Below, piece after piece: positions 40,601 to 49,600 of a DNA stretch of 64,000 bases; position 1 is the first letter of the stretch, and every line of letters begins with the position of its first letter. The notes beneath the pieces were generated by a model, which saw only the letters and a program-made list of their open reading frames with translations, made no database searches and was not told where the DNA came from. The position numbers and the translations under genes were made by a program. Where the stretch lies: contig NC_083582.1 in the NCBI RefSeq assembly GCF_027579695.1, forward strand, positions 79,427,227 to 79,491,226, written 5' to 3'. The stretch comes from Neoarius graeffei. Lineage: Eukaryota; Chordata; Actinopteri; Siluriformes; Ariidae.

Positions 40601-43600
40601 GATCTGCTCACTATGAGACAAATGTATGTGTTGAAACCTTAATTACAGATTTGAAACTACACTCATCTGTAAATATTGCAGCAGTGGGTGAAGAGATATG
40701 TTTTGATGTGTCAGTGCTTCCAACTGGTATTGAAAGCCACCAGTTTCTCTGGTATAACAGTTCTTCCTGTGACTGCCCTGTGAATGGGACATCACATCAC
40801 TGCTTTGTTTTTTCAAAAGAAGGCAAACATGAAATTAAGGTAATCACACAAAACCGGGTCAGCAAGAAAACTGTGGCAACAACAGTCTTTGTCCAGAGAC
40901 CTATATCAGAACTATCTGTGTGGCACAGTGGCGATAGAGAAGTGTTTACTGTCAATCAGTCATATTACTTTTGGACTGAGCCAAGCCAGAATGATGTTGT
41001 TATTGAGTGGGACTTTGGTGATGGTTCGCTGAAGAATGAAGGCCAAAATCTGTCACATGCTTTCACTTCAGCTGGTCAGTATCATATCAGAGCTTTGGTT
41101 TTCAATGCAGTTAGCAAAGAGATTGTAGGTGTTGATGTAGAAGTCCAGGTTCCTATATCAAATGTAATAATTCACACTAACAAGCCATTTGCAGAAGCAG
41201 GCCAAGAAGCAGTTTTCACTGTTTCAAGCAATGTCATGGATAATGTTGAATTTTATTGGACAGTGGACTCCCTGACTCAATCACAGCTCGGAACATCAGA
41301 GTACAAGTATGTGTTTCCCAAAGCAGGGATCTTTCACATTAAAGTGTTGGTCCAGAATCTTGTCAGTAAAATCGAAACCTCAACAACAATTGAGGTTTTA
41401 GAGAGAATACAAGATGTCCAAATTACAAGCCAGGTTCTTAGATCGATGAGCTATTGTCCTACAAATGAGACTATCACTCTGATTGCTTCTGTAAACCAGG
41501 GTACCAGCTTGGCATATCACTGGTTAGCTCATCAAGATGGAGTTGATGACATAGTTGGTAATGGCAAACAGTTTGAATTATTTACACGTCACCCTGGTAA
41601 TGTGTCTTTAAAGCTTATAGTTGCCAATGTTCTTGGTAAAGTGCATAGCAATTTTTCTTTAAGGGCAGTTGAACGTATTTCTCATGTAAGTATCTCCTCA
41701 CCATTAAATGTAATAGTGAAAGGAAAACCCATTAACATCAGAGTGACTATGAAAACTGGGACAGATCTTCAGTATATTTGGTTTTTAGATACTGATCAGT
41801 CTCCTGTAACAACAGATGTACCTTTTGTCCTTCATGCTTTCAATGCCATTGGTGTTTTCAAGCTCAGAGTGTCAGTAAGAAATGTTCTTGGCTCAGTCAA
41901 TGCCACTAAACAACTTAAAATTCAGGAGCCTGTTTCAGAGATTGACTTTGAGGTAAATGGACAATCACATCCCTACTTTGTCACATCAAACAGTTTTGTG
42001 AAGTTGCAAGGATCCATCAGAAAAGGAAGTGATCTACACTGGGAGTGGAGTACCATTTTCTCGGACGGAAGTACAATTGTTTTAGGTAAAAATCAAACTG
42101 TCACCTATTCCTTTATGTATGCAGGAGATCACCGAGTAATACTTAACGTCTCAAATGAGATTAGCTGGCAGTCTGTCTCACATGGAGTAACAGTTCAAGA
42201 TGCCATTGAAGGTTTTCGTCTAAGAGTGAGTGATGCAATCGTCTGTGAGAACAATCCAGTCACTTTCATATCCTCCATCACTCAGGGAAGCAGTGTTTCA
42301 TTCAGCCTGGAATTTCCAGGAGGGAATGCATCCCTAAAGGATCAGGAGGGTTTTACCACCTCATCCATTCCTGTTGGAAATCACACTATCAAAGCAGTTG
42401 CTCAGAATCTTGTTAGTGCTTTGTCAGCAAATATCACTGTGAACGTGGTAGAACGAGTAAGAGGTCTTCATTTGATTGACTGCTGCTCCTCTGTTTTGGA
42501 AGCCTCAAAACCAGTCAGTTTCAAAGCATCAGTAAGCACAGGATCTAAAGTTATTTACCAATGGAATTTCCACTTAGATGGCTTCAAAACTTTACAACAA
42601 ACTGGTGAAAATGTTATATATTCCCCTGTCAGCAATGGATCCCTGTCTGTGACCGTAGAAGCTCGGACTGACTTCTGTTCTCAGTCCATAATGGAGACGG
42701 CACAAGTTCAGTGGCCAGTGAAAAGCGTGCAGCTCTCTATCGTATCTGATGGACCTTTTGTAGATCACAATGTCACTTTTTTTGCCCTCACTGATGGTGG
42801 GAGTGACCTTATGTTCAAGTGGAACTTTGGTGATGCTCCTGAAGGGATCCAAGTTACAAAATCCAATCAGGAAGTCCAGAAATATAAGGTTGAAGGCAGA
42901 TTTATGGTCCAAATAACTGTTTTCAATAACATCAGCCAAGTCTTTGCACAATTCCCAGTTCTGGTAAGGAAACTGGAATGCACCCAGCCTCACATCACCC
43001 TCATCCAAGAACAGGAGAAAATTCTTAAATCAAGTCCAAACTATTTTGAAGCAAGTGTGGATCTGAATGATTGCACCTCTTACAAGACAAGCTATCTCTG
43101 GGAGATCTTTACAGATCCAGACTGCAAGGAAAGGAAAGTATTTTTAAATGGTTCAGTGGATGTTACTACACCACTCCTGACTCTCCCAAAGCATACACTA
43201 GACGTGGGAGACTATTGTCTGAAGTTTACTACAAGGTTTGAAGGAACACCGTTACAACATTACAAGACTACAGGGTTTTCTGTAGTGAACAGTCCATTGG
43301 TTCCCTTGATCAAAGGTGGCTCTTTTCAAATTTGGTCAAACCAGAAAGACCTGATACTGGATGGAACAGAGTCTTATGATCCTGATGATACAGTTAATGA
43401 GGCTGATCTGTTGGAGTTTCAATGGGATATTACAATGGTGAGTACAGTGTTGTTTTTGGCAGCCATTTTTGATTTAGTTTTAGTCTTATGGATGAAATGG
43501 TTATTAGTTTTAGTCACATTTTAGTCAATTCTATCCTTGATAGTTTTGGTCTAGTTTTAGTCATTCATTTTAGTCAAAAAATAAATTACTTTAAAACATT

Positions 43601-46600: not shown

Positions 46601-49600
46601 TGCTCTCTACATAAACGCTGTCTAGTGTGCACGCTCTCTACGTAAACGCTGTCTAGTGTGCACGCTCTCTACGTAAACGCTGTCTAGTGTGCACGCTCTC
46701 TACATAAACGCTGTCTAGTGCGCATGCTCTCTACATAAACGCTGTCTAGTGTGCACGCTCTCTACGTAAACGCTGTCTAGTGTGCACGCTCTCTACGTAA
46801 ACGCTGTCTAGTGTGCACGCTCTCTACGTAAACACTGTCTAGTGTGCACGCTCTCTACATAAACACTGTCTAGTGCGCACGCTCTCTCCATAAACGCTGT
46901 CTAGTGTGCACGCTCTCTACATAAACGCTGTCTAGTGCGTATGCTCCATTGTTCACAGACTCGTGTTTCTGCCTCCGTTTAACATGTCGCAATATGCTGA
47001 TGGAGCACAAACATGTCATGATGAACACACAACTAGAAGATGACCACGCTGTCTCTAGTTTATAGCCACAGCATGTATCTCTGTCTCCCATTACAAGGCA
47101 TTCCATTTTATTTTCTGCTGGATTATGTGTAAAATATGTCCATAAATCATCATGTCTTTTCCGCCCACCAAGCCCTTGTGCTGGCGTTGCCACTGCCATG
47201 GTCCATGAACTGTGCACTGTGCCCGGACATGCCCGGTGCAGGGCTCTACACTAACTTTTTTTTTCAGGAGCATACGTGCTCCTAAGTTAAAAATTTTTGG
47301 AGCACAGGGAAAAAAATGGGGGCACAAGCACAAGTAGGTTTTCATTTTAAAGGTTTATTGCAGCGCAAACCTTAGACACACCAACACATAAAACGCAAAA
47401 CTCAATTGAGAATGAATGAATGAATGAATGAATGAATGAACAAACAAATGAATAATGAACAACTGAATGAATGAACAAACAGTAGCTAAACAGAGAGCAG
47501 AGCTCAGCAGAGCTAACAACATCATCAAGGACAGCTCCCACCCTGGCTCTGAGTTCTTTGACTTGCTGCCCTCAGGCAGGCGTTACAGGTGCATCAAAGC
47601 AACGACCAACAGACTCAAAAACAGTTTTTTCCCACAGGCCATAACCACCTTGAACAATTAGCCTTTTTCACATTACGTCACTTGCAGGGGAACTCATATC
47701 CATTTTCAGCCTTTTGAATGGAAGAAGAGGTATACGGCGGCAACATATGTTAACAAAACCGTGTCATTCACAGATAAGATTGATAATAATATTGCGCATT
47801 GTTGTTTATCATTACGTATTGTTAGCGACCATTCCAGTCACCTATCTGCCTTGTTTTGGAAAGGAAGTTTACTGACTTTCTATGGTTGCTACTTGTTAGC
47901 CAGCAGATTAGCATGCCGCCTCTTCTTCTATTCAAAAGACTGAAAACGGATGTGAGGTTCTTCTGCAAGTGACGTAATGTGAAAAAGGCTAATTACATGC
48001 ACTGACTGACGCCACTTCTGGCAGGTGCAACAATGCGCCAACAAGGACCTAAAAGGACAATATTCTCACACTTACCTGATACAGTGCAGTACTTATTACA
48101 GTGCAACCTCACACAGCAACTTTTTAGTTTTTATAGCTTTTGTATATTTTATATTTATATTTCTACACTTTTACATCCATACCCAATACAATGCAATACC
48201 AAATACAGTGCAATATCCTGAGTTTTGTAGCTGAACTGAGTTTCTATAACTAATGTGCAATTAACATCTGCACCTCAACACGCCCAGTTGTTTATATATT
48301 CTTTGTTTTTCTGCTGTGTTGTGACATGCACCATTTGTATATACTGTATATTATTTGTTTTTCTGCTGTGTTGTATGTTCCCATCTAAATGTTTGCACTG
48401 GGGTGTGTGCTTTCCATCTCATTATATAATTTTCCCGCACCTTCTCCCGTCGTTCTAGCTTTCTTCACTACACTTTCTTCCTCGTCCATTCTTTTATTCT
48501 TGTTTCCACCATCATTGCTTTTAAAAAACGCCATTATTCTCTGCATAGCGAATATATTTCTCAGCTCGGTCCGAACCAGCTCTCAGTTATCTCTCAGTTG
48601 AATGATCTGATGAATCCCTAAAAAGCACTTTTCTCACTTAATGCCACACCCACAACATACACCCGTGGGAAAGAGGGGCAATCACAGAAAGATGGGGCAG
48701 AACGGCAAAAAAAAGTAACTTTTTCACTCTCCCCGGCTACCGTGGGAACCACCGCAGTGCAAGACAGAGGCAATGCACGCAACTACAGACAGGGAGCAAG
48801 GCGCAGGCAGAACACACACACACACACAACACTGAACACACACACTTGCAACAGTACAGGCCGTTACTCGTTACACTATTCGGTCGGCTATCCAGCGCTG
48901 GATTTACATACTTTGCAGTTTAACTTTTGATACATTTTAGAATGTTAAACTCGTCGCGTCTGTGCTCAGTGCTTTCCGAAATTGTCGGCCGCAAGAAGCC
49001 CTCGCACGAATGCGCGTGGTTTTTTTTTCGTCATTCGCATGCCGAAAAATTTGCTCGCAAATGCGAGTGAAACGTGCGCACTGTAGAGCCCTGGCCCGGT
49101 GGTGGGCGTGACCAAACAAGGACTGGATGCAGGTGCATTGCTGATATTTTCAGCATTTGGCAGACAGGTTGAACACACCGTTGGAGGAAATGCTATGCAT
49201 TTTGATAGTCCTATAGCCAACCCACTAACATTTTCATCTCATCTCATCTCGTCAACGAAAACAACAGATACATCTCGTCATATTTTCGTGATCAAAGAGT
49301 TATGTTTAGCTCGTCACTGTCTCGTTTTAGTCATGAAAAAAAGGTGCATTAACGAAATCATTTCGTCATCATCATCGTTAACGAAAACAACACTGGGTGA
49401 GTATTATGAGTCAAATCATATATCAATTGCCATGTTTGCATATATTGTACTTTGCAAGTACCAGTATTAAGCCCCCTTGAAGTTTTCCACATTTTGTAGG
49501 GTTACAACCTGGAACTGAAATGGAATCAATCCATGCATTTACACAAAATGGACCATATTGTTGAAGTGGATATGTAAGACATGAAGTGGTGGTCAGCTAA

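What the first reader, a model, noticed from the sequence alone, without database searches (positions are those of the whole stretch)
43430..49410. hAT insertion whose 8-bp target duplication is the splice donor of the giant PKD exon
The exon ends ATG|GTGAGTA. GGTGAGTA occurs at 43437-43444, immediately left of the element end CAGTGTTG, and again at 49396-49403 immediately right of CAACACTG. A hAT makes an 8-bp duplication, so insertion at this exact point copied the donor. The upstream copy keeps the gene spliceable, while the downstream copy is now a second donor-like site 5.96 kb into the intron. The insertion would be tolerated only because the duplication regenerated the signal.
Basis: partly seen in the sequence, partly recalled or inferred. 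Interest (0 to 1): 0.85.

Follow-up and report, generated by a model that had tools for sequence, protein, structure and literature searches.

The report
Jumping gene that duplicated a splice donor
A transposon landed exactly on the end of a very large exon of a fish polycystin gene and, because such elements copy eight bases at their landing site, it left the true splice signal intact and planted a second, strong-looking signal about 6,000 bases downstream; the event looks real and neat, but is of a known kind.

Summary
A blind scan for 8-bp repeats around inverted CA...TG ends finds this element, a hAT nested in it and one 113-bp MITE. The host is a polycystin-1-type gene; splicing at 43437/43438 gives one unbroken REJ-domain match through the following exons. 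Empty sites were found at codon level: 13 of 16 relatives are ORFs that run past this exon end; in the nearest, the peptide continues into the sequence right of the element (18 of 27 residues; 0 of 2000 shuffles as high), with one donor and no element. So the intron is old, and one insertion on the window's own branch suffices. The downstream copy has the strongest predicted U1 pairing of 642 GT sites in the intron, the true donor being second; a consensus score puts the true donor first and the copy fourth. Whether the copy is used is untested: no RNA. Kind: known; about 5 such events per 10,000 random insertions are expected under assumed genome figures.

The parts
39797..43437 (+). Giant exon (taken as the counterpart of human PKD1 exon 15), 3641 bp: PKD repeats and start of REJ domain; enters in phase 1, leaves in phase 0
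   Evidence: ORF, acceptor and donor, Pfam PKD and REJ, TIGR00864 polycystin 704.5 bits, below that model's whole-protein cut-off of 1861.4
43437..43444 (+). Upstream target-site copy GGTGAGTA: last exon base plus intron +1..+7; the authentic donor
43445..49395 (+). Non-autonomous hAT-type element, 5951 bp including a minisatellite and nested insertions
43445..43456 (+). Left terminal inverted repeat CAGTGTTGTTTT; five TTTTAGTC repeats follow up to 43575
43664..46937 (+). 31-bp minisatellite, 105.7 copies, inside the element
47231..49101 (+). Nested hAT (47239-49093, ends CAGGGCTCTACA) with its own 8-bp duplication GCCCGGTG
47656..47994 (+). Foldback MITE-like insert (two 38-nt inverted-arm pairs) within the nested element
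49384..49395 (+). Right terminal inverted repeat AAAACAACACTG
49396..49403 (+). Downstream target-site copy GGTGAGTA: decoy donor joined to the original intron sequence
52088..52261 (+). Next exon (174 bp, phase 0), continues the REJ domain
52377..52514 (+). Following exon (138 bp, phase 0)
58557..58839 (+). Following exon (283 bp, REJ domain)

Best explanation
A non-autonomous hAT transposon inserted, by an 8-bp staggered cut, across the exon/intron boundary of an old intron in a teleost pkd1-type gene (last exon base to intron +7). Gap repair copied the donor core to both sides (inferred from known hAT chemistry; the result is seen in the sequence). The upstream copy stays joined to the exon and should be the donor in use; the downstream copy kept the original intron context and became a decoy donor 5959 bases on. 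One insertion, on the window's lineage after its split from the nearest relative found, explains the data. It is most likely a nearly neutral intron enlargement, the decoy being silent or nearly so (inferred).
For: Exact 8-bp duplication and 12-bp perfect ends. Exon end: the exons joined at 43437/43438 give one REJ match over profile positions 8-337 (210.8 bits); the exon alone gives positions 1-128 (106.2 bits) and the exon read on into the element positions 1-132 (109 bits). The joined 320 residues align end to end, 63% identical, to an annotated fish protein, P0010. Empty site: of 16 relatives, 13 are ORFs running past the exon end; 8 of the 13 (P0001-P0007, P0009) continue with Val-Ser, as GTGAGT would read; P0001 and P0002 continue into the window's right flank (scores 75 and 50 without the shared VS, 0 of 2000 shuffles each; against the element 12 and 12). 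Tree: window and P0001 are sisters at 100/100, the other seven Val-Ser rows outside. The 3641-bp exon has no stop.
Against: No RNA evidence for either donor. Relatives were seen as protein only, so their donors are inferred from codons; in P0001 the last exon codon is Ile, so its exon does not end in G. Six of the 8 Val-Ser tails are too short or too diverged for a firm match to the flank (shuffles reaching the score, of 2000: P0006 34, P0004 49, P0007 153, P0005 522, P0003 1199, P0009 1256). Two distant relatives with tails of 4-5 residues score higher against the element than the flank (P0013 11 to 4, P0014 11 to 6), on 2-3 residues each, which I take as chance. No hAT transposase remnant in the 5 ORFs scanned of 22. 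The repeat family was not identified, and the window's own genome could not be searched.
Confidence: 0.93

Rival explanations
1. The downstream donor copy is used: it defines a pseudoexon with an acceptor in the element's right end, or is joined by read-through, giving truncated transcripts that lower the output of the gene.
For: Best predicted U1 pairing of 642 GT sites in the intron, -12.3 against -10.6 kcal/mol for the true donor and -11.1 for the joined-flank empty site. Possible acceptors with fair pyrimidine content at 49330 (0.76), 49153 and 49297 (0.65 each); four real acceptors of this gene range from 0.53 to 0.82.
Against: All 17 AG candidates examined in the 330 nt upstream (exons of 53-329 nt) would break the protein: 14 by a stop in frame, 3 by frameshift; AGs further upstream were not examined. 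By the consensus-frequency score (table recalled) the true donor ranks 1 and the decoy 4 of 642. No RNA data.
Confidence: 0.12
2. The hAT created the intron (an introner-like event), supplying a donor from its target duplication.
For: Introners are known that take the 5' splice site from the target duplication (PMC9860276, passages).
Against: Relatives without the element already have the intron: 13 of 13 ORFs that run past the exon end leave it at this place, with a Val codon at or one codon past it, and P0001 and P0002 run into the same intron sequence. The acceptor ends at 52087, 2.7 kb outside the element.
Confidence: 0.01
3. The 8-bp repeat is coincidence, or the element is an assembly artefact.
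For: GGTGAGTA is a near-consensus donor, hence common: 4 in the window against 1.78 expected. Long minisatellites are prone to assembly error (general knowledge).
Against: Repeat and perfect 12-bp ends coincide; 1 such structure in 20 shuffled windows even with 8-bp ends; relatives show the flanks joined.
Confidence: 0.02
4. The element prefers donor-like targets, so the hit is directed rather than random.
For: None beyond this one case.
Against: The nested hAT used GCCCGGTG and the 113-bp MITE GACCTAAT, though these are other families or sizes. Hermes prefers nTnnnnAn (PMC10368747, passage), which GGTGAGTA does not fit. Random insertion predicts about 5 cases per 10,000 copies (with assumed genome size and intron number).
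Confidence: 0.02

Closest known systems
Ac/Ds and Ds1 insertions in plant genes (hAT exonization)
   Same: hAT elements with an 8-bp duplication that add splice donors to a host gene (PMC5432752, abstract and passages)
   Different: There the extra donors come from the element's ends; here the extra donor is the host's own, copied by the target duplication
Introners (intron-generating DNA transposons)
   Same: In some families the target duplication supplies the 5' splice site (PMC9860276, passages)
   Different: Introners make new introns; here the intron is old and the element only enlarged it
Stwintrons of [D1,2] type
   Same: Concern a donor interrupted by inserted sequence (PMC12403724, start of abstract in the listing)
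   Different: The element's right end reads CACTG before GGTGAGTA, without an AG, so neither a nested intron nor a recursive-splice site ends there
Short-ended non-autonomous fish hATs
   Same: CAGTGTTG ends and 8-bp duplication; likeness to zebrafish repeats is recalled, from no call
   Different: Carries a 3.3-kb minisatellite and nested elements; exact family not identified

Membership tests
hAT superfamily (non-autonomous) | 8-bp target-site duplication | tested here: met
   GGTGAGTA on both sides; single in relatives at codon level
hAT superfamily (non-autonomous) | Short terminal inverted repeats of the form CA(G)...(C)TG | tested here: met
   12-bp perfect CAGTGTTGTTTT / AAAACAACACTG
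hAT superfamily (non-autonomous) | hAT transposase, in the element or in a relative that mobilises it | tested here: inconclusive
   5 of 22 ORFs of at least 55 aa overlapping 46938-49395 were scanned, no transposase domain; no autonomous partner could be sought. Absence is expected of a non-autonomous copy
hAT superfamily (non-autonomous) | Subterminal repeats for transposase binding | tested here: inconclusive
   Five TTTTAGTC in the left 131 bp, one near the right end; binding not tested
Introner | Insertion creates a new intron | tested here: not met
   Intron present without the element in relatives
Introner | Splice site recruited from the target duplication | tested here: inconclusive
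   The donor lies in the duplication, but it was a donor already
Polycystin-1 type gene | PKD repeats followed by REJ domain | tested here: met
   the one hit named as polycystic kidney disease 1b is from Hemibagrus guttatus
Polycystin-1 type gene | GAIN/GPS, PLAT and channel-like membrane region | not tested
   Would lie downstream; not sought
TE-derived exon (exonization) | Spliced transcript using a site in or made by the element | not testable with these tools
   No RNA-seq

The most novel reading that the evidence does not exclude
The duplication has made an intron with two donors in which the site that pairs better with U1 is the false one. The cell must choose the weaker upstream site by exon context, and leakage to the downstream site (poison pseudoexon or 6-kb read-through) makes the insertion a dosage-lowering allele of a polycystin gene. 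Excision of the hAT would leave two donors in tandem.
Probability: 0.08. Interest if true: 0.6.

Novelty: new member of a known kind. Interest (0 to 1): 0.4.

Why it matters
It is a clean natural experiment on splice-site choice: two identical donor cores, one with the original exon context and one with the original intron context, 5959 bases apart in the same intron, with empty-site relatives as controls. It also shows how target duplication can make a hit on a splice site survivable, the same arithmetic that some introners use. Insertions near donors are expected in numbers, so the case illustrates a principle rather than adding one.

Tried and rejected
The window's own genome could not be searched for other copies of the element and their targets: the genome search did not complete in ten tries. 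One scan of viral contigs for the element end: 0 exact matches. Solved structures matching the joined REJ stretch: 0 at E up to 1. A second protein search with 329 codons, including the reading into the element, gave 1 hit among 879 candidates, a partial Cirrhinus mrigala protein without a tail past the junction; no relative with the filled site was seen, within the length limits of the two searches. Rfam at gathering thresholds: 0 matches. Rejected: introner origin, recursive splicing (no AG before the downstream copy), coincidence, directed insertion; reasons are with the rivals. Literature: I looked for a case of a host donor copied by a target duplication and judged by titles and starts of abstracts only (20 of 45 papers listed; 4 of 4; 3 of 3; 4 of 4; 10 of 49; 10 of 43). 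None listed announced a vertebrate case; that is not a claim that none is in print. PMC7789003 was seen in passages and added nothing used here. One search found the exon-15 size, another the catfish repeat paper, another the Hermes paper.

Full report
What is there. At 43437-43444 GGTGAGTA is followed at once by CAGTGTTGTTTT; at 49384-49395 AAAACAACACTG is followed at once by GGTGAGTA. The element between is 5951 bp. A scan of the whole window that was not told of this site, asking for an 8-mer, inverted ends of the form CA...TG, and the same 8-mer within 12 kb, returned three structures: this one, a hAT nested inside it (47231-49101, duplication GCCCGGTG) and a 113-bp MITE (19073-19185, duplication GACCTAAT); 20 windows shuffled in blocks of two bases gave one hit together when the ends were 8 bp long. 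The 8-mer alone is not rare (4 in the window, 1.78 expected; 11 of 100 shuffles had at least 4).

The element. It has five TTTTAGTC repeats at its left, a 31-bp minisatellite of 105.7 copies (43664-46937), the nested hAT, and in that a foldback MITE-like insert. Five ORFs scanned, of 22 of at least 55 aa overlapping 46938-49395, show no transposase domain. It is best called a non-autonomous hAT; the exact family was not identified, since no library of eukaryotic repeats was on hand.

The gene. The exon 39797-43437 (3641 bp) encodes PKD repeats and the start of a REJ domain; nearly all of it (residues 2-1211) matches the polycystin model TIGR00864 (704.5 bits, below the cut-off of 1861.4 set for whole proteins). 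Exons of 174, 138 and 283 bp follow at 52088, 52377 and 58557. Human PKD1 exon 15 is 3620 bp (PMC11490921, passage). An ORF at 19787-20707 is 74% identical over 233 residues to the protein P0008 named Hemibagrus guttatus polycystic kidney disease 1b, so the gene seems to fill much of the window on the + strand.

The donor. Joined at 43437/43438, the last part of the exon and the next three give one REJ match over profile positions 8-337 (210.8 bits). The exon alone matches positions 1-128 (106.2 bits); read on into the element it matches 1-132 (109 bits). The joined 320 residues align end to end, 63% identical with one 1-residue gap, to the annotated Metynnis protein P0010. The other annotated relative, P0008, lacks the 58 residues of the 174-bp exon (58 gaps; by eye the break is at the exon ends). 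This fixes the donor by homology; RNA was not available.

The empty site. One protein search returned 15 relatives among 380 candidates, a second 1 more. Thirteen of the 16 are ORFs from unnamed sources that run past the exon end, as ORFs called on genomic contigs would; that they are fish is inferred from their likeness to named fish proteins. P0008 and P0010 are annotated, spliced models and P0016 has no tail. Eight of the 13 (P0001-P0007, P0009) continue with Val-Ser, as GTGAGT reads; in 7 of these 8 the third codon (Ile or Asn) needs A at intron +7, in P0005 (Phe) it does not fit. By eye none of the eight continues with the element's peptide. The window's right flank, read from the downstream copy, is [27 protein letters not shown] and stop; P0001 has [27 protein letters not shown], 18 of 27 identical and equally long. 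Leaving out the shared VS, P0001 and P0002 score 75 and 50 against this flank (0 of 2000 shuffles as high for each) and 12 each against the element. P0006 and P0004 match weakly (34 and 49 of 2000), P0007 hardly (153), and P0005, P0003 and P0009 not beyond chance (522, 1199, 1256). The other five of the 13 are more distant, with tails of 3 to 9 residues that have a Val codon at or one codon past the exon end; P0013 and P0014 score higher against the element (11 to 4 and 11 to 6), on 2-3 residues, which I take as chance, and P0012 and P0015 were too short to score. So the intron predates the element, the empty site carries one donor, and the insertion is derived. These are codon-level statements: no DNA of the relatives was seen. 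P0001 ends its exon in an Ile codon, so it does not carry G at -1; P0003, P0004 and P0006 end it in Met, as the window does.

When. In the tree of 16 rows (window and P0001-P0015), window and P0001 pair at 100/100 and the other seven Val-Ser rows lie outside (the root is by midpoint, for drawing only; P0008 and P0010 sit apart on an odd branch, perhaps because they are incomplete models). One gain on the window's end branch suffices. The identity to P0001 is 89% over 1152 columns, so P0001 is taken to be another species, not another allele.

How it works. Hermes, a hAT, integrates with a stagger that makes 8-bp duplications (PMC10368747, passages); the same is inferred here. The upstream flank therefore keeps a whole target copy: exon, donor and intron bases to +7 are unchanged, and only +8 onward is now element. 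The downstream copy keeps the old intron context and has TG from the element's end at -3 and -2. Predicted pairing with the U1 5' end (recalled) is -12.3 kcal/mol for the downstream copy, -10.6 for the true donor and -11.1 for the joined-flank empty site; the two copies rank first and second of 642 GT sites in the intron. A consensus-frequency score (table recalled) ranks the true donor first and the downstream copy fourth. So the decoy is a strong site by either measure, and the measures disagree on which of the two is stronger. A pseudoexon needs an acceptor; the 17 AG candidates examined within 330 nt upstream would all break the protein, 14 by a stop and 3 by length. Extension of the exon to the decoy would meet a stop at 43522-43524. 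Use of the decoy would thus be harmful if frequent, and the open exon suggests that it is rare. That last step is inference.

How special. With an assumed genome of 0.8-1.0 Gb and 200,000-250,000 introns, about 5 in 10,000 random insertions would place an 8-bp duplication over donor positions -1 to +6. Channel catfish carries hAT/Ac 1.3%, hAT 0.6% and hAT-Charlie 0.5% of its genome (PMC5953449, passages), so, at a guessed few hundred bases per copy, tens of such events per genome are plausible by chance. Related known kinds are Ds1 exonization in plants and introners; the case differs from both because the host's own donor was copied and the intron is old. Verdict: the finding is right, is well supported and now has its empty-site control at codon level; it is a new member of a known kind, of moderate interest.

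Noticed in passing
window 43664-46937: A 31-bp minisatellite of 105.7 copies (95% matches) sits inside the hAT element; whether it travels with the family or grew in place is unknown.
   Followed up: partly
window 47231-49101: A second hAT (ends CAGGGCTCTACA, duplication GCCCGGTG) is nested in the first, and a foldback MITE-like insert (47656-47994) is nested in that: three generations of insertion.
   Followed up: partly
window 19065-19193: A 113-bp MITE with ends CAGTGTTGCCAG and 8-bp duplication GACCTAAT shares its first 8 terminal bases with the large element.
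   Followed up: partly
P0008 (Hemibagrus guttatus) against window 52088-52261: The annotated protein lacks the 58 residues of this exon; either an annotation gap or real skipping of a frame-neutral exon.
   Followed up: partly
window 53624-54418 and 57138-58223: Two similar Tc1-type transposase ORFs on the - strand (recognised by eye, not searched) lie in the intron before the exon at 58557; the second is open over 361 codons.
   Followed up: no
window 31545-33731: Reverse-transcriptase and integrase-like ORFs of a Gypsy-type retroelement (recognised by eye, not searched) lie upstream of the giant exon.
   Followed up: no
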